64,000 nt of DNA from Allobosea sp. GTDB lineage: Bacteria > Pseudomonadota > Alphaproteobacteria > Rhizobiales > Beijerinckiaceae. Numbering within the stretch: position 1 is the first letter of the stretch; each line of letters opens with the position of its first letter. Below, in pieces: positions 25,950 through 38,167 of this stretch. Location: NCBI RefSeq assembly GCF_017308075.1, contig NZ_JAFKFX010000044.1, positions 1 through 64,000 on the forward strand, written 5' to 3'. The translations under genes and the position numbers were made by a program. The notes under the pieces are model-generated. The model did no database searches. It was not told the DNA's origin and worked only from the letters and a program-made list of their open reading frames with translations.

Positions 25950-28475
25950 ATGAACCCGACCGCACGCGACTACCTCCCACTCGCCATCGCCGCCATCGGC
26001 CTGGCCGCCCTGCCCTCGCTGATGCATGCGATCGGGCTCGGCACCACCTCCGCGACCGAGATCGTCGTCTTCGCCATCGCCTGCATGGCGCTGAACATCC
26101 TGGTCGGCACCACCGGCCTGGTCTCCTTCGGCCATGGCGCCTGGTTCGGCCTCGCCGCCTATGCGGCAGGCCTAATCCAGCGCAACTGGCTACCCGGCCA
26201 GTTCGTGCTGCCGATCCTGCTGGCGCTCGTCTTCGTCGGGCTCGTCGCCGTAGGCTTCGGCGCGCTGATCCTGCGCCGCAGGGGCGTCTATTTCTCGCTG
26301 CTGACGCTGGCACTGACCGCGATGGTCTATTCGGTCGCCTTCCGCTGGACCAGCGTGACCGGCGGCGAGGACGGGCTCGGGGGCATCAAGCGCCCGCTCT
26401 TCGCCGGCATCGACTTCGAGACCGCCCTGCCCTTCTACGCACTGGTCGCAACGATCGGTTTTGGTGTGGTCTACTGCCTCTGGCGCTTCCATCGCTCGCC
26501 GGTCGGTACCGTCCTGGTCGCGATCCGCGAGAACGAGCAGCGCGCCCGCTTCCTTGGCTACGCCACCACCCGCTACAAGCTCGTCGCCTTCACGCTTTCG
26601 GCGATGCTGACCGGGCTCGCCGGCACGCTCCTCCTCTTCAACAACCGCATGACCTCGGCCGAGCCGATCTCGGTCGCCTTCTCCGGCGAATTGCTGGCGA
26701 TGGTGGTGATCGGCGGCATGCGCTCCTTCCTCGGGCCGGCGCTCGGCGCGCTCTTCTTCGTCGTCTTCCGCGACTATCTCTCCAGCGTCACCGAGAACTG
26801 GCTGTTCTGGTTCGGCCTGCTCTTCGTCGCCTTCATCGTCTTCTCGCCGGACGGGCTCGTCGGCGTCGGCCAGCGCCTGCTGAAGCCGTTCCGCAAGGTC
26901 CCGGCCGAGGATGCCGCAATGTCGGCGCGCAAGGCCGGCGCGGTCGAGCTCCCGGCCTTCATGAAGCCGGCCGATGCCGGCGACGGCACGATCCTCGCCG
27001 CGAAAGGCCTCGCCAAGAGCTTCGGCGGCATCAAGGCGGTCGAGGGCGTCGACATCACCATGCGAGACCGCAAGCTACATGCGCTGATCGGCCCCAATGG
27101 CGCCGGCAAGACGACCGCCTTCAATCTGATCTCCGGCCTGTTCCCGCCGGATCGCGGCGAAGTCCGCCTGCGCCAGCGCGACATTGCCGGGCTCTCGCCG
27201 GAGGCGATCACGCAAGCCGGCATCGGCCGCGCCTTCCAGATCACCAACCTGTTCCCGACGCTCTCCGTCGCCGAGAACGTTCGCCTCGCCGTGCAGGCGC
27301 GGGCTCCGGAACGCTTCGGCTTCTGGCGCGCGGCCGGTGCGCTGGAAAAGATCAACGACGAGTCCCGCCAGGTCATCTCGACCATGGGGCTTTCCGGCAT
27401 CGAGACGGCGGAAGCGGGCTCGCTGAGCTATGGCGGCCAGCGCCTGCTCGACATGTCGCTGGCATTGGCGACGAGCCCGCGCGTGCTTCTGCTCGACGAG
27501 CCGCTCGCCGGCCTCGCTGCGGCCGAGCGCGAGCGCGTCGGCAACCTCATCAAGTCGATCTCGCGCGACCTGCCGGTGCTGCTGGTCGAGCACGACATCG
27601 ACCGCGTTTTCGCGATCGCCGACCATGTCACGGTGATGAACGAGGGGTCCGTCCTGGTCGACGGCACGGTCGAGGATGCTCGCTCCTCCCCCAAGGTGCA
27701 GGAGGTCTATATCGGCTCCGGCGCCCATGCGCTCGCCGAGAAGCCCCGCGAAAGCGCCGCCGGCTCCAAGGTCCTGCTGGGGCTCAATGAGGTCGACACC
27801 TTCTACGGCAAGAGCCACATCCTGCGGCAGGTCTCGCTCGACGTGCACGAGAACGAGATCGTCGCTTTGCTCGGGCGCAACGGCGCCGGCAAGTCGACCC
27901 TGCTCAAGACGATCACCGGCATCGCTCCGCCGGCCCAGGGCGCGATCATGCTGGCCGGCAGCGACATCGCCCGGCTGCCGCCTGCCCGAATCGCGCGCGC
28001 CGGCATCGCCTATGTCCCGCAGGGGCGCGGCCTCTTCGCCGGCATGAGCGTCAAGGACAATATGGAGCTCGGCCGCCTCAAGCGCCTGACCGGCAATGGC
28101 GTACGCTGGGAGGACGAGAAGATCTTCTCCTTCTTCCCGCGCATTCGGGAACGCTGGCATTCGCCGGCGGACTACCTCTCCGGCGGCGAACAGCAGATGG
28201 TGGCGGTGGCCCGGGCCCTGTCCGGCGACACCAGGGTGCTCCTGCTCGACGAGCCTTTCGAGGGGCTGGCGCCCGCCGTCGTCGAGGAGCTGTTCGAGGC
28301 CTTCGACAAGCTGCGCCGGGAGATCGCCATCGTGATCGTCGACCATCATCTCGATCTCGCGCTCGCACTCTCCGACCGTACCGTCGTGCTCGAACGCGGC
28401 CAGGTCACCCATACCGGCCCCTCGCGGGCGCTGAGCCAGGACCTGGCGCTGCGCCGGCAGGTTCTGTGGCTGTGA
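25950..28475 (+). CDS. LivM-LivG-LivF triple fusion (permease plus two ATPases)
   Basis: One 841-residue frame carries three usually separate importer parts. Residues about 1-315 are a LivM permease (LNILVGTTGLVSFGHGAWFG, VVIGGMRSFLGPALGALFF). Residues about 345-590 are LivG, with Walker A GPNGAGKTT at 381-389, a signature in LSYGGQRLLD and LLLDEPLAGL. Residues about 608-841 are LivF, with Walker A GRNGAGKST at 642-650, YLSGGEQQMVAVAR and LLLDEPFEGL. Linkers near 320-345 and 590-608 are short and hydrophilic. All key motifs are intact, so the whole should be functional. LivM-LivG fusions are familiar; the three-part form is less usual. The single chain fixes the ratio of its three components. 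Confidence 0.92.
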   Translation: MNPTARDYLPLAIAAIGLAALPSLMHAIGLGTTSATEIVVFAIACMALNILVGTTGLVSFGHGAWFGLAAYAAGLIQRNWLPGQFVLPILLALVFVGLVAVGFGALILRRRGVYFSLLTLALTAMVYSVAFRWTSVTGGEDGLGGIKRPLFAGIDFETALPFYALVATIGFGVVYCLWRFHRSPVGTVLVAIRENEQRARFLGYATTRYKLVAFTLSAMLTGLAGTLLLFNNRMTSAEPISVAFSGELLAMVVIGGMRSFLGPALGALFFVVFRDYLSSVTENWLFWFGLLFVAFIVFSPDGLVGVGQRLLKPFRKVPAEDAAMSARKAGAVELPAFMKPADAGDGTILAAKGLAKSFGGIKAVEGVDITMRDRKLHALIGPNGAGKTTAFNLISGLFPPDRGEVRLRQRDIAGLSPEAITQAGIGRAFQITNLFPTLSVAENVRLAVQARAPERFGFWRAAGALEKINDESRQVISTMGLSGIETAEAGSLSYGGQRLLDMSLALATSPRVLLLDEPLAGLAAAERERVGNLIKSISRDLPVLLVEHDIDRVFAIADHVTVMNEGSVLVDGTVEDARSSPKVQEVYIGSGAHALAEKPRESAAGSKVLLGLNEVDTFYGKSHILRQVSLDVHENEIVALLGRNGAGKSTLLKTITGIAPPAQGAIMLAGSDIARLPPARIARAGIAYVPQGRGLFAGMSVKDNMELGRLKRLTGNGVRWEDEKIFSFFPRIRERWHSPADYLSGGEQQMVAVARALSGDTRVLLLDEPFEGLAPAVVEELFEAFDKLRREIAIVIVDHHLDLALALSDRTVVLERGQVTHTGPSRALSQDLALRRQVLWL

Positions 28476-28686: not shown

Positions 28687-29628
28687 ATGACCAAGATCGC
28701 CATCGTCGGCTCGGGCCTGATCGGCCGTGCCTGGGCCACCGTCTTCGCCAGCCATGGCTTCGAGGTCGCGCTCTATGATCTGAAGCAGGAGGCCGCTCAG
28801 GCGGCGCGCGCCCATATCGGCACCAATCTCGAGGAACTCGCCGGCCACGGGCTGGTCGACGATCCCAAGGCGGCGCTGGCCCGCATCCGTGTCGCCGCCG
28901 ATCTCGCCGATGCGCTGAAGGACATCATTCTCGCCCAGGAGAACGGTCCCGAAACGGTCGAGGCGAAGCGCGAGCTGTTCGCGGAGATGGACCGGCTCGC
29001 GCCGGCGGGCGCCATCCTCGCTTCCTCGACCTCGTTCATCATGGCCTCAGCCTTTTCCGACGCGCTGCCGGGACGCTCCCGCTGCCTCGTCGCCCATCCG
29101 GTCAACCCGCCGCATCTGGTGCCGATCGTCGAGCTCGCCCCGGCGCCCTGGACCGATCCGGCTGTCGTCGCCGAGGCCAAGCGGATCTACGAGCAGGCTG
29201 GCCAGGTGCCGATCACCCTGCGCAAGGAGAAGGCCGGCTTCGTGCTCAACCGTCTCCAGGCCGTGCTGCTCGCCGAAGCCTTCCGCCTTGTCGGCGAAGG
29301 CGTCGCCAGTGCCGAGGATGTCGACAAGACGATCCGTGACGGGCTCGGTCTGCGCTGGTCCTTCATGGGCCCGTTCGAAACGATCGAACTCAACGCGCCG
29401 GGCGGCATTCCCGACTACTGCGCCCGCTATTCCGAGTCGCTCGACCGCATGGTCAAATCCTCGGAAGGGCTCGGCAACCCGTTCAAGCCGGAGACGGTCG
29501 CCGAAGTCATGCGCGAATGGCGTGGCGCGCAGGAGGCAGAGCGCGTCAAGCGCCTGAGCGACTGGCGCGACAGCCGCCTCGCCGCGCTGCAGGCGCACAA
29601 GCGCGCCTCGCAGCACAAGCCGGACTGA
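28687..29628 (+). CDS. 3-hydroxyacyl-CoA dehydrogenase-family enzyme (L-gulonate/carnitine dehydrogenase-like)
   Basis: This 313-residue NAD-dependent dehydrogenase has an N-terminal Rossmann fold (IAIVGSGLIGRAWATVFASH, glycines 8-10-13). AILASSTSFIMAS and AHPVNPPHLVPIVEL lie around the catalytic His, followed by the helical dimer domain (KAGFVLNRLQAVLLAEAF, GLGLRWSFMGPFETIEL). Length and motifs fit lambda-crystallin/L-gulonate 3-dehydrogenase and L-carnitine dehydrogenase relatives, not fatty-acid oxidation multienzymes. It oxidises a 3-hydroxy acid to a 3-keto acid. The next gene encodes an enzyme class that cleaves 3-keto acids, so the two probably act in sequence. Confidence 0.85.
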   Translation: MTKIAIVGSGLIGRAWATVFASHGFEVALYDLKQEAAQAARAHIGTNLEELAGHGLVDDPKAALARIRVAADLADALKDIILAQENGPETVEAKRELFAEMDRLAPAGAILASSTSFIMASAFSDALPGRSRCLVAHPVNPPHLVPIVELAPAPWTDPAVVAEAKRIYEQAGQVPITLRKEKAGFVLNRLQAVLLAEAFRLVGEGVASAEDVDKTIRDGLGLRWSFMGPFETIELNAPGGIPDYCARYSESLDRMVKSSEGLGNPFKPETVAEVMREWRGAQEAERVKRLSDWRDSRLAALQAHKRASQHKPD

Positions 29629-29662
29629 ATTCAAGACCAATCAGCCTCGAAGGACGTATCGC

Positions 29663-30595
29663 ATGGCGAAGAACCGCAAAGTCATCATCACCTGCGCCGT
29701 CACCGGCGCGATCCATACGCCATCCATGTCGCCCTATCTGCCGGTGACGCCCGATGAGATCATCGACGCCGCCGTCGGCGCGGCCGAGGCCGGCGCGGCG
29801 CTCGTCCATGTCCATGCCCGCAATCCGAAGACCGGCCAGCCCGACCAGTCGCCCGAGGCCTTCGAGCCCTTCCTCAAGGTGATCAAGCAGCGCTCGAACT
29901 GCGTCATCAACATCACCACCGGCGGCGCGCCGACCATGCTGGTCGAGGAACGCCTGAAGCCCTGCGCCCATTTCAAGCCCGAGGTCGCATCGCTCAACAT
30001 GGGCTCGATGAATTTCGGGCTCTACCCGATGCTGAACCGCTTCAAGGAGTTCAAGCACGACTGGGAGCGCCCCTATCTCGAAGGCTCGGACGACCGCGTC
30101 TTCAAGAACACCTTCAAGGACATCGCCAACATCCTGACCACCTGCGCCGAGAACGGCACGCGCTTCGAGATCGAGTGCTACGATATCGGCCATCTCTACA
30201 CGCTTGCGCATTTCGTCGACCGCGGGCTGGTCAAGCCGCCTTTCTTCGTCCAGTCGGTCTTCGGCCTCCTCGGCGGCATCGGCCCGCATCCGGAAGACGT
30301 CATGCACATGAAGCGCACGGCGGACCGGCTCTTCGGCGACGACTATCACTGGTCGGTGCTCGGCGCCGGCCGCCACCAGCTGCCGATCGCGGCGATGGCA
30401 GTCGCGATGGGCGGTAATCTGCGTGTCGGCCTCGAGGATTCGCTCTGGCTCGGCCCGGGCCAGCTCGCCAAGTCCAACGCCGATCAGGTCCGCGCCGCCC
30501 GCCAGATCGTCGAGGGCCTCGGCTTGGAGATCGCGACACCGGACGATGCCCGCGAGCAGCTCCAGCTCAAGGGCGCCGACAAGGTCAATTTCTAG
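29663..30595 (+). CDS. Beta-keto acid cleavage enzyme (BKACE, DUF849)
   Basis: This 310-residue TIM-barrel enzyme has the zinc-binding HVHARNPKTG (His49, His51), NITTGGAPTMLVEERL, GSMNFGLYPML, FEIECYDIGHL and MGGNLRVGLEDSLWLG. BKACE enzymes condense a beta-keto acid with acetyl-CoA, releasing acetoacetate or acetoacetyl-CoA-type products and a shortened CoA ester; known substrates include 3-keto-5-aminohexanoate and dehydrocarnitine. Substrate specificity cannot be read here. It lies 34 bases after the dehydrogenase and ends the plus-strand catabolic operon. Confidence 0.9.
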   Translation: MAKNRKVIITCAVTGAIHTPSMSPYLPVTPDEIIDAAVGAAEAGAALVHVHARNPKTGQPDQSPEAFEPFLKVIKQRSNCVINITTGGAPTMLVEERLKPCAHFKPEVASLNMGSMNFGLYPMLNRFKEFKHDWERPYLEGSDDRVFKNTFKDIANILTTCAENGTRFEIECYDIGHLYTLAHFVDRGLVKPPFFVQSVFGLLGGIGPHPEDVMHMKRTADRLFGDDYHWSVLGAGRHQLPIAAMAVAMGGNLRVGLEDSLWLGPGQLAKSNADQVRAARQIVEGLGLEIATPDDAREQLQLKGADKVNF

Positions 30596-30697: not shown

Positions 30698-31978
30698 TCA
30701 GCGCCCCGCCACCAGCGTGAAGAAGTCGGGCGGCCCCATCTGGCCGCCCTTCAGCACCATCTCGATCCCGTCGAGCCGTGGATCGTCGCTATGGGCGAGG
30801 CAGAGCGGCGCGCCCGGCACCAGGGCTGCGCGATGCGACAGCCCCCAGATGTCGAGCATGCGCACGGCCAGCGTCGAGGTATCGCCGCCGGCCACCACGA
30901 GCCGGCCGATCGCAGCCTCCGCCACGATGGCGCGCAAGAGTTCGCCCGTCGCTTTCGCGACGCTGGCGGTATCGCCCGGCGCGCCGGCAGGCCGGTCGGT
31001 GACCAGCATGACATCACCTTCCCCAAGCAACCGCCGCGCCTCGTCGCGCAGCGCCGCCGCATGGCCGGACTCCCCGAGCAGGCGGGCGGGATCGACGGCG
31101 ATCCGGGCATAGCCCGAAGCGGCCTCGACCTGCGCCCGCGTCACCGGCGAGAGGCTGCCGACGAGGGCGAGCACCGGGCTTGACGGCTTCGGTGTCGTTG
31201 AAGCGCAGCTCGCCTTGTCGCCACCGCCGAGCAGCGGCGTGCCGGCCAGCGCCTGCGCCACCGAACTCGGGCCGACCACGAGCATGGGCGAAAGCGCCGC
31301 CCGTGCGGCGATCGCCCGGCCAGCCACGGCGAGATCCTCGACGCGCGCAATGTCGAAGAGCAGCGGGCCGGCGCCCTTGGCGAGACGCGCCGCGAGGCCA
31401 CCGGGATCGCCATAGCTGCGATAATCGACCAGCCCGATATCGCCGAGCCCCTGCGCCGCAAGATGCAGGCGCAGATCCGCTTCGCCCATGGGGGTCGCCG
31501 GATGGACGCTCATCGTCGGATGGCGGTCGATGCGGTGCACGGTGCCGCCGGTGCCGGCTGCCGCGAACAGGTTTCCGAACAGGCAGTAGCGACCGAGATT
31601 GGGTTGGCCGCCGATGATCGGCAGGAGGCTGTTGGGAAAATGCGGCTGCAGCGCCCGCACCGCCGCGCCGATGCTGCCGAGATGCGGCGCGCTGTCGAAG
31701 GTCGAGCAGCACTTGTAATGCAGCAGACCGATGCCGAGCCCGGCAAGGAAGCCGCCGGCCGCCTCGAGTTCGGCCGCCATCGCCTCGGGAGCCATCGCCC
31801 GCGTCGCGCCTGCGATGCCGAGCGCGTCGAGATCACCGGCACGGGCCAGTTGCTCTGAGGTCGGAATCCGCAGGAAGAGCAGCGCCTTCTGCCCGCCCTC
31901 GGCGAGCACCGCGAGCGTATCGGTCGAGCCGGTGAAATCGTCGCCATACCAGGCGTAACGGGGCAGCGCTCCGGCCAT
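30698..31978 (-). CDS. Four-carbon acid sugar kinase family protein (DUF1537)
   Basis: This 426-residue protein has the N-terminal sugar-acid-binding YAWYGDDFTGSTDTLAVLAE, then HYKCCSTFDSAPHLGSIG and IGGQPNLGRYCLFGNLFAA. The C-terminal nucleotide-binding part has RLVVAGGDTSTLAVRML and LKGGQMGPPDFF. Members phosphorylate sugar acids or their 2-keto/3-keto forms with ATP, for example 3-oxo-tetronates and 3-oxo-isoapionate. Its start lies 6 bases after the RuBisCO-like stop, so the kinase probably provides the phosphorylated substrate of that enzyme. An OiaK-like role is the leading guess. Confidence 0.87.
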   Translation of the reverse strand: MAGALPRYAWYGDDFTGSTDTLAVLAEGGQKALLFLRIPTSEQLARAGDLDALGIAGATRAMAPEAMAAELEAAGGFLAGLGIGLLHYKCCSTFDSAPHLGSIGAAVRALQPHFPNSLLPIIGGQPNLGRYCLFGNLFAAAGTGGTVHRIDRHPTMSVHPATPMGEADLRLHLAAQGLGDIGLVDYRSYGDPGGLAARLAKGAGPLLFDIARVEDLAVAGRAIAARAALSPMLVVGPSSVAQALAGTPLLGGGDKASCASTTPKPSSPVLALVGSLSPVTRAQVEAASGYARIAVDPARLLGESGHAAALRDEARRLLGEGDVMLVTDRPAGAPGDTASVAKATGELLRAIVAEAAIGRLVVAGGDTSTLAVRMLDIWGLSHRAALVPGAPLCLAHSDDPRLDGIEMVLKGGQMGPPDFFTLVAGR

Positions 31979-31984
31979 GGCAGC

Positions 31985-33262
31985 TCAGCCCGCCGACTGG
32001 CCGAAGAAGGCGAGCGCCTGCTTCAGTTCGGGGTGCTGCTGCGCCGCCTCCGCGACCGGCACCCCGCCGGCGACCGCCTCCCAGGCCTGGCGGATGCTGG
32101 CGACACCGGCCGCCGGCCCGCCGGGATGGGCGAGGATGCCGCCGCCCGACATGAACAGCAGGTCGGCATGGCCGATCGCGTCGAAGGTCGGCTGGGCCGT
32201 GCCGGCCCATTGCCCCGAGGAGAAAGCCGGCATGACGCGGTCATCGGCGCCGTCGGTCAGCGGCGTCACGCAATCCCGCGCCGAGGTAACGACCTCCTCG
32301 TCCTCCTGCGCGAATTTCCCCTGCACGCCATGGACATGCATGTGGTCGACGCCGGCGAGGCGCCAGAGCGTTTGATAGGCCTGGAAGGAGATGCCGAGCA
32401 GCGGATGACGCGAGATCGCGCCATAGCCGTTGCGGTGCCCGTGCAAAGCGAGATCGGTCGAGCGCCGCAGCGTCTCGATGGCAGAGAAGCCGCAACAGTT
32501 CAGGCTCGCCATCACGCAGGTGCCGCCCTCCTGCGCCACGAGGTCGGCATGGCGGCGCATCGCATCGGTCTCGTCGGTGATGTTGAAGGCGATCATCACC
32601 GCCTTGCCGGTCCTGTCCTGATGGCGCCTGACGGCGGACATCACCGCCGGTACGCGTTCGGCCAGCGGCGCATGCACCGGATCGGCGCAGATCTCGTCAT
32701 CCTTGATGAAATCGAGCCCGGCCGCGCAGAGCCCCGCGACCAGCTCGGCCGTCTCATATGCGCTCAAACCGACATTGGGCTTGATGATCGAGCCGACCAA
32801 CGGCCCGCTGGCGACCCCGGCGAGCCGGCGCGTTCCGGCGATGCCCTGCGTCGGCATGGCAAAGCGTCGGCGGAAGGACCAGGGCAGCGTGATCGTGTCG
32901 AGCCTGAGACCCGTGACCTCGCCGAGATCATAGAGATTACCGGCAACGATCGAGGCCAGCGTCGCAAGATTGGCGCCGACATTGTCGACCGGGAAGGAGA
33001 TCGTCACCCGCGCCCGCCGCCACGGCCCGTCGACGCCCTTGCGCGCCAGCCAGGCATTGGGAAGGCTCGGCTCGTCCACCGTTTCGAGAACCGCGACATT
33101 GGTGACCACGGCCCGCGCCCGCTCGCGCAGTTCATCGGTCTCCCCGGCGACGCGGGTGAAGGTGCCACAGGACTGCTCGCCCGCCATCACCTCCGCAACC
33201 TTGCGCGGGTCGAGCGGCGTCTCGATCAGATAGGAGGCTTCGAAACGGTCGGCTGCGGACAT
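31985..33262 (-). CDS. RuBisCO-like protein (form IV type)
   Basis: This 425-residue protein is homologous to the RuBisCO large subunit. Conserved active-site features are SIIKPNVGLS (Lys161), GLDFIKDDE with the carbamylation-type Lys187 and metal ligands Asp189/Glu190, the loop-6-like HVHGVQGKF with Lys316, and phosphate-binding SSGQW and MSGGGILAHPGG. It lacks the small subunit and the full RuBisCO context. RuBisCO-like proteins beside a DUF1537 kinase act in apionate catabolism (OiaX type) on 3-oxo-isoapionate 4-phosphate. No apionate oxidoisomerase is in the window, so the exact substrate is open. It is in an operon with the kinase and probably with the VOC and TRAP genes. Confidence 0.88.
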   Translation of the reverse strand: MSAADRFEASYLIETPLDPRKVAEVMAGEQSCGTFTRVAGETDELRERARAVVTNVAVLETVDEPSLPNAWLARKGVDGPWRRARVTISFPVDNVGANLATLASIVAGNLYDLGEVTGLRLDTITLPWSFRRRFAMPTQGIAGTRRLAGVASGPLVGSIIKPNVGLSAYETAELVAGLCAAGLDFIKDDEICADPVHAPLAERVPAVMSAVRRHQDRTGKAVMIAFNITDETDAMRRHADLVAQEGGTCVMASLNCCGFSAIETLRRSTDLALHGHRNGYGAISRHPLLGISFQAYQTLWRLAGVDHMHVHGVQGKFAQEDEEVVTSARDCVTPLTDGADDRVMPAFSSGQWAGTAQPTFDAIGHADLLFMSGGGILAHPGGPAAGVASIRQAWEAVAGGVPVAEAAQQHPELKQALAFFGQSAG

Positions 33263-33280
33263 GTCGCTATACTCACCAAG

Positions 33281-33398
33281 GCGGTCGTCCCGGACAAGCC
33301 GCCTTCGGCGGCGCCGATCCGGGACCCATTCCTGAGCCTAATTCAGCGAGGCTCAGGCATAGGTCCCAGGTCTCCCTACGGTCGCCCGGGACGACCGC
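33281..33398. repeat. Palindromic repeat inside the RuBisCO-like/TRAP operon
   Basis: The outer arms GCGGTCGTCCCGG and CCGGGACGACCGC are exact inverted copies. Inner arms CCTGAGCCT and AGGCTCAGG form a second stem. It lies between the VOC gene and the RuBisCO-like gene and matches the element at 24930 in layout, with compensating G/C for A/T changes in the outer stem (GTCGTC versus GTCATC). Confidence 0.8.
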
Positions 33399-33416
33399 AG
33401 AGCTAAGACGAAAGCC

Positions 33417-33956
33417 TCAAAGCCTGCTCAGATCCGGAAACGGCCGCACCGGGTCCTTTCCGTCCCAATTGTCCGCCGCCTCGCGGATCAGGCGGAACAT
33501 CTCGCCCTTGGGGCCGGCGACCTCCGAGAGCTCGATCACCGTGCCGGGATGGTAGTGGGTGTCGAAATAGACGAAGCGGCCGCGTTCGCCGACCTCACCC
33601 GACATCACCGGCTTGAAGCCCTCGGCAAGCAGCCGCTCCATGTCGGCATCGTAGTCCGAGGTCCAGTAGGCGACATGCTGCAGGCCGGTATGCCCGGCAT
33701 CGGTGAAGTCCTTGTACATCGACGGCACCGCGTTGCGGCACTGGATCAGCTCGATCTGCAGCGGCCCGGAATTGGCGAGCGCCACCGAATTATGCGGCTC
33801 GTATTCCTCGCCCTTGTACCGGTAGTTTTTGATCGGAACCTTCGGATTGTAGAAGAACGGGCCGACGCCGAGCACCCGGCTCCAGTAATCCATCGCCGCC
33901 TCGATATCGGGGACGACATAGCCCGCCTGGCGGATCTGGCCGAAGAAGCGGCTCAT
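33417..33956 (-). CDS. VOC-superfamily protein (glyoxalase/dioxygenase fold)
   Basis: This 179-residue protein has two beta-alpha-beta3 modules. Likely metal ligands are the Glu of LQIELIQ, the His of LQHVAYW and the Glu of TVIELSEVAGPKG; the first-strand ligand position (IRQAGYVV) lacks His. FVYFDTHYHPG lies in the C-terminal module. It resembles lactoylglutathione-lyase-like or epimerase-type VOC members, but no specific reaction can be assigned. Its place between the TRAP transporter and the RuBisCO-like gene suggests an isomerase, lyase or epimerase step in the same sugar-acid pathway. Confidence 0.75.
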   Translation of the reverse strand: MSRFFGQIRQAGYVVPDIEAAMDYWSRVLGVGPFFYNPKVPIKNYRYKGEEYEPHNSVALANSGPLQIELIQCRNAVPSMYKDFTDAGHTGLQHVAYWTSDYDADMERLLAEGFKPVMSGEVGERGRFVYFDTHYHPGTVIELSEVAGPKGEMFRLIREAADNWDGKDPVRPFPDLSRL

Positions 33957-33986
33957 GGTTTTGGTCTTTCGCTGTCGAGAGGGGAA

Positions 33987-35864
33987 TCAGAGGAAGCCGA
34001 TGGAGATCCACGGCACGGCCGCGACGATGACGAGGCCGACAAGCAGGGCGAGCACATAGCCCCAGATGTATTTCAGCCCCTCGTCGGGATTGATCTTCGA
34101 GATCGCGCAGGCGCCGTAATAGCCGACGCCGAAGGGCGGCGCGAAAAGCCCGATGCCCATCGCGAAGATCACGACCATGGCATAGTGCACCTCGTGCACG
34201 CCGATCTGCTTGGCGATCGGGAAAAGGAGCGGTCCGAACAGCACGATCGCCGGGATGCCTTCGAGCACGCTGCCGAGGATGACGAAGGCGACGATCGAGA
34301 TCGCGAGGAAGCCCCAGCTGCCGCCGGGCACCGCCGCCATGACCTTGGCGAGGTCCTGCGAGAAGCCCGACTGCGTCAGCCCCCAGGCCATCGCTGTCGC
34401 GCAGCCGATGATGAAGATGATCGCGCCGGTGAGCGACGCCGTGTCGACCAGCATGCCTTTCAGCCGGCGCCAATCGAACTGGCGGTAGATCAGGATGCCG
34501 GCCAGCACGGCATAGGCGATGCCGATGGTCGAGACCTCGGTCGCGGTGGCGACGCCCTCGACCACCGCAGCGCGGATCACGAAGGGCAGCGCGATGGCGG
34601 GCGCCGCAATCAGGCAGAGCCTACCGATCTCGCGCTTCGAATATTTGGTGACGTCGCTGAGGTCCTCAGCCCTATTGCGCCGCCAGACGACGAAGCAGAG
34701 CGCGATGCCGAGCACGACAGCCGGCAGCATGCCGCCGGTGAACAGGGCCGCGATCGAGACGCCGGTGACCGAGCCGATGGTGATCAGGACGATCGAGGGC
34801 GGGATCGTCTCGGTCTGCGCGCCGGTCGCCGAGAGCAGCGCGACGAGGTCGCCCGGCTTGGCGCCGCGCTTCTGCATCTCCGGGAACAGGACAGGCGCGA
34901 TCGCGGCCATGTCGGCGATCTTCGAGCCGGAGATGCCGGAGACCAGATACATCGCGCCGACCAGCACATAGGAGAGCCCGCCGCGGACATGGCCGAGCAA
35001 CGAGGCCAGGAACTGGATCATGGCGCGGGCCATGCCGGTCATCTCGATCAGCGCACCGAGGAAGATGAAGAGCGGCACGGCGAGCAGGATCAGGTGGCTC
35101 ATACCCTCGTCGAGCCGGCCGACCATGACGATCATCGGCGTCGAGGTCGTCAACGAGAGATAACCGAAGGTGGCGAGCGCAAAGGAGAAGGCGATCGGAA
35201 CGCCGGCGAAGACGTTCGCCGCCACGATGCCGACGAAGAAGATCAGGAGGTTGAGCTTGCCGAGCGGCTTCAGCGCCGGACCTGCGACATAGAACAGCAC
35301 GACCAACGCCACGGTTATCCCGGCTGCCAGCACGACGGTTTTCCAGGAGCCGAAGCGCAGCAGCCGGCAGAAGGCGGCGAACAGCATCAAGACGATGCCG
35401 ATCGGCAGCGCCGCGGCGCGCCAGCTATTGGCGATCTCCAGCGCCGGCGTGACGATGAAGCGCTCCTCCTCGGCATAGTCCAGCGCATCCGGCAGGATCA
35501 TCACCAGGAAGGCGATGGCGGCGGTGATCGCGAGCGCCTCGAGCAGGAGCCGCGTCTGCGGCCCGACGCGGGAAACGAGGCCGGTCATCCGCATATGCTC
35601 GCCGCGCCGAAGCGCGACGACCGCGCCGAGCATGGAGAGCCACAGGAACAGGATCGAGGCGAGCTCGTCCGACCAGACCAGCGGGGCGTGGAAGGCATAG
35701 CGGGCGGTGACCCCCGCACCGAGGATGACGATCTCGGTGAGGACGAGCACCGCCGCGATCGCCTCGACCATCGCTCCGACGGCCCGGTCGAGCCGGTCGG
35801 CGAGGCGTCCGAGCCCGGTCGCAGGCACGGCCTGCGTCGGCATCAAGGCGATGTGCCCGGCCAT
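33987..35864 (-). CDS. TRAP transporter fused small and large permease (DctQM)
   Basis: This 625-residue inner-membrane protein has a DctQ-like N-terminus (residues about 20-165, four hydrophobic segments, VWSDELASILFLWLSMLGAV) joined to a DctM-like large permease (about 200-625, GVPIAFSFALATFGYLSL, VPLFIFLGALIEMTGMA, VSGISGSKIADMAAIAPVLF, TIPPSIVLITIGSV). TRAP transporters use an ion gradient to import organic acids with a periplasmic binding protein. The dctP gene lies just upstream on the same strand. The VOC gene follows 30 bases later. Confidence 0.9.
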   Translation of the reverse strand: MAGHIALMPTQAVPATGLGRLADRLDRAVGAMVEAIAAVLVLTEIVILGAGVTARYAFHAPLVWSDELASILFLWLSMLGAVVALRRGEHMRMTGLVSRVGPQTRLLLEALAITAAIAFLVMILPDALDYAEEERFIVTPALEIANSWRAAALPIGIVLMLFAAFCRLLRFGSWKTVVLAAGITVALVVLFYVAGPALKPLGKLNLLIFFVGIVAANVFAGVPIAFSFALATFGYLSLTTSTPMIVMVGRLDEGMSHLILLAVPLFIFLGALIEMTGMARAMIQFLASLLGHVRGGLSYVLVGAMYLVSGISGSKIADMAAIAPVLFPEMQKRGAKPGDLVALLSATGAQTETIPPSIVLITIGSVTGVSIAALFTGGMLPAVVLGIALCFVVWRRNRAEDLSDVTKYSKREIGRLCLIAAPAIALPFVIRAAVVEGVATATEVSTIGIAYAVLAGILIYRQFDWRRLKGMLVDTASLTGAIIFIIGCATAMAWGLTQSGFSQDLAKVMAAVPGGSWGFLAISIVAFVILGSVLEGIPAIVLFGPLLFPIAKQIGVHEVHYAMVVIFAMGIGLFAPPFGVGYYGACAISKINPDEGLKYIWGYVLALLVGLVIVAAVPWISIGFL

Positions 35865-35889
35865 GGCGAGTTCCTTCTTAGCTGTTCCT

Positions 35890-35926
35890 GGTCGTCCCGG
35901 GGCTCACGGAGAGGCCCGGGACGACC
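35890..35926. repeat. Inverted repeat between dctP and dctQM
   Basis: GGTCGTCCCGGG and CCCGGGACGACC are exact inverted arms around a 13-base loop. It lies in the gap between the binding-protein and permease genes of the TRAP operon and is a minimal member of the CCGGGACGAC repeat group. Confidence 0.75.
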
Positions 35927-35948
35927 TTGATCCGGTGGGTCGGCTCGC

Positions 35949-36965
35949 TCAAGCGAGCTTGCCGACCGCGCCTTCGAGCAGGCTCCAGGCCTCGGCGCCG
36001 AAGCGCTCCTGCCATTCCTTGTAGAAGCCGCCCTCGCGCAGCTTGGCCCGGAAGCTGTCCGGATTGGTCTTGTTGAAGGAAAGCCCCTTCGACTGCAGAT
36101 CGGCCTGCACGGTCTCGTTCAGGCTCTTGATGTCGCCCCGCTGGGCGACGCCGGCATCGTTGATCGCGGACGCCACGATCTTCTGGATATCCGGCGGCAG
36201 GCCGCGCCAGGCGCGCCCGTTGGCGATGAACCAGAAGCCGTCCCAGATATGGTTCGAGATCGCGCAATGCTTCTGCACCTCGAACAGCTTGGCGACCTGG
36301 ATGATCGGCAGCGGATTCTCCTGCGCGTCGACGACCCTGGTCTGCAGCGCCGAATAGACCTCCGAGAACTGCAGGCTGGCCGGCGCGGCTCCGAGCGCCT
36401 TGAACATCGAGATCGAGAGCGGCGAGACCGGAACGCGGATCTTCAACGAGGCCATGTCGGCGGCCTGCTCGATCGGCTTGCCCGAGGTCGTCATCTGGCG
36501 GAAGCCGTTGTCCCACATCTTCTCGAAGGCGTAGAGGTTGACCTTCTCGATCGCGGCGCGGACATGCGCGCCGACCGGCCCGTCCATCGCCTTCCAGACC
36601 TGGTCGTAATCGGCGAAGGCGAAGCCGACCGCATTGATCGCCGCGACCGGCACCAAGGTCGCGATCACCAGCGCCGACGGCGTGAAGAAGGTGATGCCGC
36701 CATTGCGGACCTGGCTCAGCATGTCGGTGTCGCCGCCGAGCTGGTTGTTCGGGAAGATCTTGATTTCGACCCGGCCGTTCGTCTCCTTGGCGACGCGCTC
36801 CGCCGCCTGCTGGGCGCGGATGTTGAGCGGATGGCTGAGCGGCAGGTTGTTGCCGTATTTCAGCTCGATCTCGGCGGCCCGCGCGATCATCGGCATGCCG
36901 ATCAGCGAAGCAGCGGGAACGGCGGCAAGGCTCTGCAACGCAGCGCGGCGGGTCAGTCCGGTCAT
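35949..36965 (-). CDS. TRAP transporter periplasmic binding protein (DctP)
   Basis: This 338-residue protein starts at the ATG at 36965, preceded by GGGAGGA. A twin-arginine-type signal (TRRAALQSLAAVPAASLIG, cleavage after ARAAE or nearby) precedes the DctP fold: LKYGNNLPLSHPLNIRAQQA, VEIKIFPNNQLGGDTDMLSQ, and KIRVPVSPLSISMFKALGA with the conserved Arg that binds the substrate carboxylate. It begins the minus-strand operon opposite the LacI-type regulator. A sugar-acid substrate fits the downstream kinase and RuBisCO-like protein; this is inferred. Confidence 0.9.
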   Translation of the reverse strand: MTGLTRRAALQSLAAVPAASLIGMPMIARAAEIELKYGNNLPLSHPLNIRAQQAAERVAKETNGRVEIKIFPNNQLGGDTDMLSQVRNGGITFFTPSALVIATLVPVAAINAVGFAFADYDQVWKAMDGPVGAHVRAAIEKVNLYAFEKMWDNGFRQMTTSGKPIEQAADMASLKIRVPVSPLSISMFKALGAAPASLQFSEVYSALQTRVVDAQENPLPIIQVAKLFEVQKHCAISNHIWDGFWFIANGRAWRGLPPDIQKIVASAINDAGVAQRGDIKSLNETVQADLQSKGLSFNKTNPDSFRAKLREGGFYKEWQERFGAEAWSLLEGAVGKLA

Positions 36966-37060
36966 GATGTCCTCCCAGATTCGCTTGATGCGATTTGATT
37001 GCTCTTGATCGTCTTGCACTCAGGATAGAAATCACGTCTGATGGTCATCAAGCTCATTTT
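36966..37060. promoter_or_regulatory. Divergent promoter region, TRAP operon versus LacI regulator
   Basis: The 95 bases between the two starts are richer in A and T than the genes and contain symmetric motifs: GATGGTCATC at 37040-37049, and CATCA...TGATG arms across about 37046-37067. Such symmetry near the regulator start is what a LacI dimer would bind. No single operator can be fixed. Confidence 0.45.
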
Positions 37061-38167
37061 ATGATGGTTTTTGATGGAATGAATATCCCGATTTCAACAC
37101 CGGCGCTGCCTTTGGACGTCAGCTCGGAGGTCGCCCCGCGCCGCCGCCAAATGGCCCGGGTCGAAGATGTCGCGAAGCTCGCCGGCGTCTCGACCGCGAC
37201 CGTCGACCGGGTGCTGAACCAGCGGCCGGGCGTGCGGGCGGCGACTGTGCAGCGCGTGCTCAAGGCGGCCGGAGAGCTCGGCTACGTCATGGAAGGCGCG
37301 CTACCGGCGAGCGCCCTGCGGCCGCTGCGGCTCGCCTTCCTGCTGCCGGCCGGCACCAACCGCTTCCTCACCCTGCTCGGCCGCCAGATCGCCGGCGCGC
37401 AGGATCAGCTCACCTCCTTCAACATGCGGGCCCGGGTCGAGTACATCGAGAGTTTCAAGCCCGAGCTCCTCGCCCAGCATCTGCGCCAGGCGGCGCGCGA
37501 CGTCGACGGCATCGCCTTCATGGCGCTGGAGCACCCTTCCGTGCGCGAAGCGGTCGACGGCCTCGCCGAGCGCGGCGTGCCGACGGTGACGTTGATCTCC
37601 GACATCGCCAACAGCCGCCGCGTCGCCTATGTCGGGCTCGACAACCGCTCGGCCGGGCGCACGGCGGGCTATCTCGTCGCCCGCTTCATCGGCCGCCGCC
37701 CCGCCAAGGTCGCAATGATCGCCGGCAGTCTGAGCTACCGCGCCCATGAGGAGCGCGAGATGGGCTTCCTCCATCTGTTCCAGGAGCTCTACCCGGCAAT
37801 CGATGTGGTCGGCCTGCGCGAGGGCCATGACGACGAGGGCCAGAACTACCGGCAGACCAGGACACTGCTGGCGCAGCACCCTGATCTCGCCGGCATCTAC
37901 AATATCGGCGGCGGCGCCGAGGGCATCGGCCGGGCCCTGAAGGAGACCGGGCGCCAGCACGAGGTCGTCTTCGTCGGCCACGGGCTGACGCTGGACACGC
38001 GTGCCCTGCTGATCGACGGCACGATGGACGCCGTGATCACCCAGCACCCGCAGGCGACGCTGATGACCTGCGTCTCGATCTTCGCCAATCTGCGTGCCGG
38101 CCGTCCTGCGACCGAGGGCACGAGCCGGCCGAGCACCGAGATCGTGCTGCGCGAGAACCTGCCCTGA
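37061..38167 (+). CDS. LacI-family transcriptional regulator
   Basis: From the ATG at 37061 the protein has 368 residues; starts at 37079 or 37151 (MARVEDVAKLAGVSTATVDR) are also possible and would shorten the N-terminus. The LacI DNA-binding domain VEDVAKLAGVSTATVDRVLN and hinge LGYVMEGALPAS are followed by a periplasmic-binding-like effector domain (LRLAFLLPAGTNRFLTLLGR, VAMIAGSLSYRAHEEREMGF, GIYNIGGGAEGIGRAL). It probably represses the divergent TRAP/RuBisCO-like operon until a sugar acid or phosphate ester binds. Confidence 0.88.
   Translation: MMVFDGMNIPISTPALPLDVSSEVAPRRRQMARVEDVAKLAGVSTATVDRVLNQRPGVRAATVQRVLKAAGELGYVMEGALPASALRPLRLAFLLPAGTNRFLTLLGRQIAGAQDQLTSFNMRARVEYIESFKPELLAQHLRQAARDVDGIAFMALEHPSVREAVDGLAERGVPTVTLISDIANSRRVAYVGLDNRSAGRTAGYLVARFIGRRPAKVAMIAGSLSYRAHEEREMGFLHLFQELYPAIDVVGLREGHDDEGQNYRQTRTLLAQHPDLAGIYNIGGGAEGIGRALKETGRQHEVVFVGHGLTLDTRALLIDGTMDAVITQHPQATLMTCVSIFANLRAGRPATEGTSRPSTEIVLRENLP

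What the first reader, a model, noticed from the sequence alone, without database searches (positions are those of the whole stretch)
30698..36965. RuBisCO-like protein, DUF1537 kinase, VOC protein and TRAP importer under a LacI regulator
The RuBisCO-like protein keeps Lys187/Asp189/Glu190, Lys161, the loop-6 Lys316 and phosphate-binding glycines, so it is probably an active enzyme on a phosphorylated substrate. The kinase gene is 6 bases away. The pair resembles OiaK/OiaX of apionate catabolism, but no apionate oxidoisomerase or lactonase is present and a VOC protein takes part instead. This may be a variant pathway with a new entry step.
Basis: partly seen in the sequence, partly recalled or inferred. 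Interest (0 to 1): 0.7.

Follow-up and report, generated by a model that had tools for sequence, protein, structure and literature searches.

The report
RuBisCO-like sugar-acid operon with VOC
A soil bacterium carries a compact, widely shared set of genes, a relative of the CO2-fixing enzyme RuBisCO among them, that probably imports and breaks down a small sugar acid by a route whose first enzyme and substrate are not yet known.

Summary
Confirmed: an intact minus-strand operon DctP, fused DctQM, VOC protein, RuBisCO-like protein (RLP) and DUF1537 kinase (36965-30698), with a divergent LacI regulator. It is a conserved cassette. In the 80 nearest RLP loci, VOC lies directly upstream in 80, the kinase directly downstream in 79 (one cut), LacI in 77 (three cut), and no ApnO/ApsD/ApnL-like gene was found. 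The RLP belongs to a clade of its own, with the unassigned PDB chain 3nwr, keeps the RuBisCO active-site positions checked, and fails the OiaX model (441 of 700 bits), as the kinase fails OiaK (298 of 700). In a few genomes VOC and its importer persist while the RLP-kinase pair is exchanged for an apionate-type pair (G127) or for PdxA plus an OiaK-like kinase (Azospirillum thermophilum; a sister VOC group likewise), or is missing while an apionate-type pair lies elsewhere (G809, G100). Best reading: VOC, with an invariant Q/E/H/E metal-site pattern, converts the imported acid into a 3-oxo acid like 3-oxo-isoapionate; the kinase phosphorylates it; the RLP decarboxylates or cleaves it. Substrate, VOC chemistry and product are inferred. 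A new variant of a known kind.

The parts
35949..36965 (-). DctP, TRAP solute-binding protein (338 aa), first gene of the operon; GGGAGG ribosome site 5 bases before the ATG
   Evidence: NCBIfam dctP 240.6 bits over cut-off 175; PDB 4oan_A 425 bits; start checked
33987..35864 (-). fused DctQ-DctM TRAP permease (625 aa)
   Evidence: Pfam DctQ 91.6 and DctM 342.8 bits
33417..33956 (-). VOC-family protein (179 aa), proposed isomerase/epimerase acting on the free acid
   Evidence: Pfam Glyoxalase_4 91.3 bits; Q10, E69, H94, E142 in 111 of 111 aligned sequences
31985..33262 (-). RuBisCO-like protein (425 aa), proposed decarboxylase or C-C cleavage enzyme on a phosphorylated 3-oxo acid
   Evidence: Pfam RuBisCO_large 233 bits; clade with 3nwr; active-site residues
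30698..31978 (-). DUF1537 sugar-acid kinase (426 aa)
   Evidence: Pfam SBD_N 157 and NBD_C 93 bits; OiaK model 297.6 bits, below cut-off 700
37079..38167 (+). divergent LacI-family regulator (start chosen by eye)
   Evidence: Pfam LacI 54.4 and Peripla_BP_4 144.4 bits; facing the operon in 77 of 80 loci
36966..37078 (.). divergent promoter region, with TGATGGTTTTTGATGG at 37062-37077 as a candidate regulator site (not tested)
   Evidence: its 10-base core recurs in 32 of 63 orthologous intergenic stretches

Best explanation
A LacI-regulated catabolic operon for a small sugar acid. The TRAP importer brings in the acid. The metal-binding VOC protein converts the free acid to a 3-oxo acid (an isomerisation, or rearrangement, of an acid that is already oxidised; in a minority of operons an extra SDR may do the oxidation first). 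The DUF1537 kinase phosphorylates it, and the RLP decarboxylates or cleaves the phosphorylated 3-oxo acid to products that need no dedicated enzyme, such as a ketose phosphate, or 3-phosphoglycerate plus glycolate as I recall for OiaT. The 3-oxo acid is most likely 3-oxo-isoapionate or a close C2-branched analogue, so the operon works like the lower half of the D-apionate pathway with VOC in the place of ApnO. Shown: gene content, conservation, residues, phylogeny, exchanges. Inferred: order of steps, substrate, VOC reaction, products.
For: VOC directly upstream of the RLP in 80 of 80 nearest loci, kinase directly downstream in 79 of 80, one cut. Plasmid collection: the 18 listed records whose RLP is at least 57% identical all carry VOC beside it; of the other 42 listed (365 records matched in all) none is among the VOC matches of 64% or more. 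Azospirillum: VOC in 34 of 45 genomes, RLP adjacent in 32. The two exceptions: G830 (VOC at the coordinates of A. thermophilum) has no OiaX-model match at 1e-50 and A. thermophilum has PdxA + DUF1537 kinase beside LacI-TRAP-VOC; G809 has its only such RLP on another contig with an ApnO-like gene and kinase. G127 has VOC 82% with an apionate-type pair (RLP 55%, kinase 38% to the window's) and no ApnO-like match at 1e-10; its RLP and kinase are sisters (100/98, 100/100) of the ApnO-linked pair of G100. The VOC tree places G127, G100, A. thermophilum and G809 inside the cassette clade, so the pair was probably lost or exchanged there. E29, T34, N109, K161, K187, D189, E190, H276, R277, H309, K316, S348, G350, G373-G375 are kept in 96 of 96 clade sequences.
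Against: No biochemical data. No ApnO-, ApsD- or ApnL-like gene in the flanks of 80 of 80 loci, and no ApnO-like match in 17 of 21 genomes. The importer too is changed in at least 10 of the 80 loci while VOC, RLP and kinase stay, so VOC is not tied to the importer alone, which weakens the argument that it acts first. The PdxA exchange fits a 3-hydroxy substrate at least as well as a 3-oxo one. G100's VOC has H56, H74 and G75 where the others have N56, R74 and N75 and its operon has no permease match, so it may be a remnant. Bosea sp. WAO (G007) has this operon and an ApnO-RLP-kinase locus, so the two need not share a substrate. The PdxA-linked sister VOCs differ at N37, H55 and N56. No VOC enzyme known to me does a ketol-acid rearrangement.
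Confidence: 0.42

Rival explanations
1. Linear C4 route: VOC plays the role of OtnI (2-oxo- to 3-oxo-tetronate), the kinase that of OtnK, and the RLP that of OtnC, giving dihydroxyacetone phosphate directly.
For: Would explain the lack of a downstream enzyme, the extra SDR in 6 of 80 loci, and the exchange of RLP for PdxA: the PdxA of L233 scores 301 bits on D-threonate 4-phosphate dehydrogenase, which I recall gives DHAP (cut-off 583, not met; it passes the general PdxA model, 314 of 290). Glyoxalase-type proton transfer suits the isomerisation.
Against: The kinase is nearer OiaK (298 bits) than OtnK (138) or DtnK (54), and so is the PdxA-linked kinase of L233 (401, 134, 52). The exchange in G127 is for an apionate-type pair.
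Confidence: 0.2
2. VOC is an accessory (glyoxalase-like repair or detoxification) enzyme and not a step of the pathway.
For: VOC homologues of 47-63% identity occur in 25 of 385 genomes of the class that have no RLP match at 1e-80, next to varied genes; the nearest solved relative, 3gm5, is named only as lactoylglutathione lyase and related lyases, 56 bits.
Against: 80 of 80 adjacency, kept when importer, RLP or kinase change; VOC identity to the window (77-99%) exceeds that of the kinase (43-91%) in the 80 loci; H55 and N56 are kept in 102 and 101 of 102 cassette-type sequences but not in the 9 others.
Confidence: 0.15
3. The RLP is an oxygenase of the kind reported for a D-hamamelose pathway, or acts on hamamelonate-type C6 branched acids.
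For: The RuBisCO positions checked are kept; a review says one RLP oxygenates 3-keto-D-ribitol 1,5-bisphosphate to 3-phosphoglycerate and phosphoglycolate (PMC10173188, passage).
Against: A bisphosphate needs two phosphorylations and one kinase is present; sister operons with SDRs, one with a hydrolase, look to me a better fit for that pathway. The primary paper is not held.
Confidence: 0.1
4. The RLP is OiaT, the known transcarboxylase/hydrolase, or a form of OiaX, in an ordinary apionate pathway whose other genes lie elsewhere.
For: Same family pair; the genome has an ApnO-like gene on contig C20.
Against: Below the OiaX cut-off; no apionate-type gene near in 80 of 80 loci; no ApnO-like match in 17 of 21 genomes; the ApnO-linked RLPs in the tree fall outside the clade.
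Confidence: 0.08

Closest known systems
D-apionate catabolism through OiaK and OiaX or OiaT (Carter et al. 2018, Nat Chem Biol; not held, known here through passages of PMC6302742 and memory)
   Same: RLP and DUF1537 kinase as an adjacent pair; RLP 47-55% identical to the 14 ApnO-type loci collected; one case of direct exchange (G127).
   Different: No ApnO-, ApsD- or ApnL-like gene near; VOC protein instead; RLP and kinase below the curated cut-offs and in clades of their own.
LysR-RLP-kinase-TRAP-SDR operons (Azospirillum oryzae, Bradyrhizobium elkanii, Rhizobium phaseoli, Caballeronia, Cupriavidus)
   Same: RLP, kinase and a related TRAP importer (DctP 51-53%, permease 49-68%).
   Different: SDR, sometimes with pyruvate kinase or a hydrolase, and no VOC; RLP 51-52% identical.
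L-threonate pathway LtnD-OtnI-OtnK-OtnC (recalled)
   Same: Logic of isomerase, DUF1537 kinase, decarboxylase.
   Different: OtnI and OtnC are, as I recall, of other protein families; the kinase is 29% identical to the OtnK of Cupriavidus.
PDB 3nwr, 'A rubisco-like protein'
   Same: Same clade, 653 bits to the window RLP.
   Different: The molecule name gives no function.
Glyoxalase I and methylmalonyl-CoA epimerase (VOC superfamily)
   Same: Glyoxalase_4 domain and Q/E/H/E at the positions I recall as metal ligands of human glyoxalase I.
   Different: Methylmalonyl-CoA epimerase model 22.7 bits against cut-off 115; no CoA or glutathione gene in the operon.

Membership tests
3-oxo-isoapionate-4-phosphate decarboxylase OiaX | NF042437 score of at least 700 bits | tested here: not met
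   441.3 bits; the eight ApnO- or SDR-type and hybrid relatives scanned also fall short, 416-472 bits
3-oxo-isoapionate kinase OiaK | NF042436 score of at least 700 bits | tested here: not met
   297.6 bits in two stretches
D-apionate pathway | ApnO, with ApsD or ApnL, in the neighbourhood | tested here: not met
   none in the window at 1e-5; none in 80 loci. Queries are my assignments, PGDH_C and GFO_IDH_MocA proteins and a long hypothetical protein of plasmid operons
D-apionate pathway | ApnO anywhere in the genome | tested here: inconclusive
   ApnO-like gene on C20, 62% identity to that of G620, with no RLP in the 19 kb around it
D-apionate pathway | kinase and RLP act on 3-oxo-isoapionate and its 4-phosphate | not testable with these tools
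   needs assays
OiaT transcarboxylase/hydrolase | clade membership with the characterised Xanthobacter protein | not tested
   the named sequence was not obtained
MtnW (methionine salvage enolase) | TIGR03332 score of at least 513.6 bits | tested here: not met
   125.2 bits
RuBisCO form III carboxylase | TIGR03326 score of at least 497 bits | tested here: not met
   233.4 bits
RuBisCO superfamily, catalytically competent | carbamate Lys-Asp-Glu, base Lys, loop-6 Lys, phosphate-site glycines | tested here: met
   K187, D189, E190, K161, K316, G373-G375 in 96 of 96 clade sequences; activity itself not tested
VOC superfamily, metal-dependent | VOC domain and four metal-ligand positions | tested here: met
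   Glyoxalase_4 over its cut-off; Q10, E69, H94, E142 invariant. Geometry not tested, structure prediction off
Methylmalonyl-CoA epimerase | TIGR03081 score of at least 115 bits | tested here: not met
   22.7 bits
3-oxo-tetronate kinase OtnK | NF043035 score of at least 350 bits | tested here: not met
   138.5 bits

The most novel reading that the evidence does not exclude
The VOC protein is a stand-alone, redox-free ketol-acid isomerase: it binds an imported 2-oxo-3-hydroxy (or related) sugar acid through its vicinal oxygens on a metal and moves a carbon group to give a C2-branched 3-oxo acid, the second half of what ApnO does alone. It would be, to my knowledge, the first VOC enzyme doing an alkyl shift, would open a second door into RLP metabolism, and would show RLP and PdxA to be interchangeable decarboxylases behind it.
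Probability: 0.17. Interest if true: 0.78.

Novelty: new variant of a known kind. Interest (0 to 1): 0.5.

Why it matters
Few RLPs have a function, and this clade, with a structure solved (3nwr) but no function that I know of, is carried by Bosea, Azospirillum, Variovorax, Polaromonas, Roseomonas, Paracoccus and others. The constant VOC and the natural exchanges of the RLP-kinase pair narrow the search to a small set of 3-oxo acids and name proteins that can be tested together in vitro. If right, it adds an entry enzyme of an unexpected family to RuBisCO-superfamily catabolism.

Tried and rejected
Rejected: methionine salvage (MtnW) and form III carboxylase, by score. The neighbouring 3-hydroxyacyl-CoA dehydrogenase and BKACE (28687-30595) as pathway parts: of the 80 loci only L003, the closest relative, has both beside the kinase; L054, L058, L064, L066 and L072 have a BKACE of 72-73% on the far side of LacI. 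A role of VOC read from its wider family: neighbours outside the cassette were varied (amidohydrolase in two, CMD, sulfate permease, TauD, FGGY kinase and others; 20 regions fetched, my gene caller and blastp found VOC in 16, 10 neighbouring proteins were scanned).

Led nowhere: the ligand of 4oan_A, nearest solved DctP. I recall its title as density modelled as (S)-2-acetolactate, a 2-hydroxy-3-oxo acid; this was not confirmed ('4OAN' found no paper; a review names 2-acetolactate among new TRAP ligands, the passage seen does not give the entry). An 81% homologue in G053 lies by what looks like an acyl-CoA synthetase (by eye) and no RLP match in the 20 kb fetched, so the lead is weak. The primary papers on apiose and hamamelose are not held. 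Searches of the held library found nothing on this operon; that says little about subscription journals. LacI operator: no inverted repeat of 14-22 bases with at most one mismatch in the window's intergenic stretch, a direct-repeat motif only.

Rows set aside: of 386 related contigs only the best 80 were returned, 63 of them 20 kb or longer. The RLP tree used 68 of 128 collected sequences, class A thinned to 34 loci; the VOC tree used 47 rows and the kinase tree 43. itself counts 78 kinases; L049 is cut by its contig end and in L056 the kinase match overlaps the RLP match, hence 79 of 80. The plasmid RLP list shows 60 of 365 records.

Full report
THE OBSERVATION. The window lies in a genome of 5.55 Mb (G000, contig C30) whose RLP is 96% identical to that of Bosea sp. 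WAO. The operon runs on the minus strand: DctP 36965-35949, fused DctQM 35864-33987, VOC 33956-33417, RLP 33262-31985, kinase 31978-30698, with LacI divergent from about 37079. The five operon frames start with ATG and are open. The gap between RLP and kinase is 6 bases.

FAMILIES. The RLP scores 441 bits on OiaX (cut-off 700), 233 on form III RuBisCO (497) and 125 on MtnW (514); the kinase 298 on OiaK (700), 138 on OtnK (350), 54 on DtnK (450); VOC is Glyoxalase_4 (91 bits) and scores 23 on methylmalonyl-CoA epimerase (cut-off 115). RLP and kinase lean to the apionate side of their families but are in neither curated family.

LABELS. I call ApnO, ApsD and ApnL the PGDH_C protein, the Gfo/Idh/MocA protein and the long hypothetical protein that accompany RLP-kinase pairs in plasmid operons; the names rest on my memory of the apionate pathway, and only one neighbour, a kinase in Paraburkholderia sprentiae, is annotated as OiaK in the records seen. 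Reactions of OiaK, OiaX, OiaT, ApnO, OtnI, OtnK, OtnC and PdxA and the spinach RuBisCO and glyoxalase numbering are recalled.

CONSERVATION. Of 386 related contigs the best 80 were returned (RLP 72-96% identical). VOC is directly upstream of the RLP in 80 of 80, the kinase directly downstream in 79 of 80 (one search counts 78; L056's kinase match overlaps the RLP match and L049 is cut), LacI divergent in 77 (three contigs cut), DctP in 68, permease in 65. Eight loci have an amino-acid-type ABC importer instead (SBP_bac_3 and BPD_transp_1 in L050), two another TRAP (L077, L080), and L082 has 125 bases between LacI and VOC matches; L012, L016 and L017 have DctP without a permease match. Six have an extra SDR between LacI and DctP, as have Neorhizobium NCHU2750 and G725. 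No ApnO-, ApsD- or ApnL-like match at 1e-10 is in the flanks held, up to 10 kb a side. These loci were chosen by RLP similarity only. Check in named plasmids: the 18 listed records with RLP at least 57% identical all have VOC next to it; none of the other 42 listed records is among the VOC matches of 64% or more. The deeper members in Rhodobacterales keep the gene order with a TRAP importer that is only 27-31% identical in DctP.

PHYLOGENY. In a tree of 68 RLPs, the window, 34 further cassette loci and 3nwr form one clade of 36 (bootstrap 88, under the 95 mark; SH-aLRT 100; stem 0.6); the ApnO-type and SDR-type RLPs lie outside. The 15 cassette kinases in the kinase tree are one clade too (98/97).

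ACTIVE SITE. In 96 of 96 clade sequences and 25 of 25 others of the ApnO, SDR or hybrid type, E29, T34, N109, K161, K187, D189, E190, H276, R277, H309, K316, S348, G350, G373 and G375 are kept; G374 is kept in 96 and 24. By alignment with part of the form III chain 8dht (not the N-terminal stretch) and by recalled spinach numbering these correspond to E60, T65, N123, K175, K201, D203, E204, H294, R295, H327, K334, S379, G381 and G403-G405. W66 is F35 in both groups. Clade-specific residues include D112, N163 (S in the others), H238, H311 (N), T355 (Q) and A346 (V). The RLP is therefore very likely an enzyme, with a pocket that differs from that of its sisters. In VOC, Q10, E69, H94 and E142 are invariant in 102 cassette-type, 3 PdxA-type and 6 distant sequences, the set I recall as the zinc ligands of human glyoxalase I. 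H55 and N56 are kept in 102 and 101 of the 102 but not in the other 9.

NATURAL EXCHANGES. (a) G127: LacI 69%, DctP 79%, permease 78%, VOC 82% to the window, but RLP 55% and kinase 38% (OiaK 551 bits), sisters of the ApnO-linked pair of G100 (RLP 74%, support 100/98; kinase 74%, 100/100); no ApnO-like match in G127 at 1e-10. (b) G100: LacI, DctP and VOC without permease, RLP or kinase match; its VOC, sister of G127's, has H56, H74 and G75, so it may be a remnant. (c) G809: LacI, TRAP, VOC without RLP or kinase match in 19 kb; the genome's only OiaX-model match at 1e-50 sits with an ApnO-like gene and kinase on another contig. (d) Azospirillum thermophilum: LacI 69%, DctP 79%, permease 76%, VOC 79%, with PdxA and a DUF1537 kinase on the other side of LacI; genome G830, whose VOC has the same coordinates, has no OiaX-model match at 1e-50. 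(e) G044, G060, G017: VOC 58-60% divergent from DctP and permease (54-61%), with a kinase 71% identical to that of (d) (G060; OiaK 401 bits), an aldolase-family protein below its models' cut-offs, and PdxA; no related RLP beside, G060 and G017 having only matches of 214 bits or less elsewhere and G044 none. In the VOC tree (a)-(d) nest inside the cassette clade (99/91) and (e) is its sister. In Azospirillum 34 of 45 genomes have VOC; 32 have RLP adjacent, the other two are (c) and (d). In a family draw around Polaromonas, 11 of 250 genomes have VOC at 1e-50 and all 11 have RLP next to it, one (G620) with the RLP in two frames beside an apionate-type cluster. In a family draw around Azorhizobium, 17 of 149 genomes gave 18 VOC matches: 7 with the cassette RLP, (a), (b), the three of (e), and 6 distant ones of 52-55%. 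In a class-wide draw of 385 genomes only the window's own has a cassette RLP, while 25 others have VOC homologues of 47-63%: the VOC family is wider than this operon.

READING. VOC stays when the importer changes and also when the kinase and the decarboxylase change. Where the pair is gone, VOC remains with regulator and importer, so it probably acts on the imported acid before phosphorylation. The pairs that replace its partners are an OiaK-like kinase with an ApnO-type RLP, or an OiaK-like kinase with PdxA. The simplest common intermediate is a 3-oxo acid like 3-oxo-isoapionate, which in the apionate pathway is made by ApnO (recalled). The minimal operon has no dehydrogenase, so the imported acid should already be at that oxidation level; where the SDR is present it may be one step more reduced. 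The lack of downstream enzymes suggests a product of central metabolism. [quoted passage not shown] Against this reading: the PdxA exchange also fits a 3-hydroxy acid or a C4 acid; Bosea sp. WAO has both this operon and an ApnO-RLP-kinase locus; 17 of 21 genomes searched have no ApnO-like match; the exchanges are few.

KNOWN OR NEW. The kind (RLP + DUF1537 kinase catabolic operon) is known; the variant with VOC, its clade and the exchanges I did not find in the held library (open-licence papers only). Papers were seen as search listings or passages only. I score it a new variant with moderate interest.

Noticed in passing
L083:8048-13149 (G000:C6): The same genome has a second RLP (47% to the window's) between two SDRs and near a divergent DUF1537 kinase (34%); one SDR is 56% identical to the extra SDR of some cassette operons.
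   Followed up: partly
37062-37077: TGATGGTTTTTGATGG, a direct repeat before LacI; its 10-base core recurs in 32 of 63 orthologous intergenic stretches.
   Followed up: partly
28687-30595: 3-hydroxyacyl-CoA dehydrogenase (PRK06129, over cut-off) and a BKACE scoring 564 bits on the 3,5-dioxohexanoate:acetyl-CoA acetone transferase model (cut-off 430), convergent with the kinase.
   Followed up: partly
25950-28475: One 841-aa frame joins a branched-chain-type permease and two ABC ATPase domains.
   Followed up: no
L236:9024-10454 (G620): The cassette RLP lies in two frames next to an apionate-type cluster (RLP, kinase, ApnL-, ApsD-like, ABC importer, ApnO-like).
   Followed up: partly
L287, L288 and L254 (G817, G831, G816): Three Azospirillum RLPs match the OiaX model only to position 327-330 of 412, although VOC lies beside each and, in the two regions fetched, the kinase follows.
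   Followed up: no
L253 (Roseinatronobacter sp. S2): Half a VOC match (62%) behind TRAP genes annotated in several short pieces: perhaps a decaying copy of the cassette.
   Followed up: no
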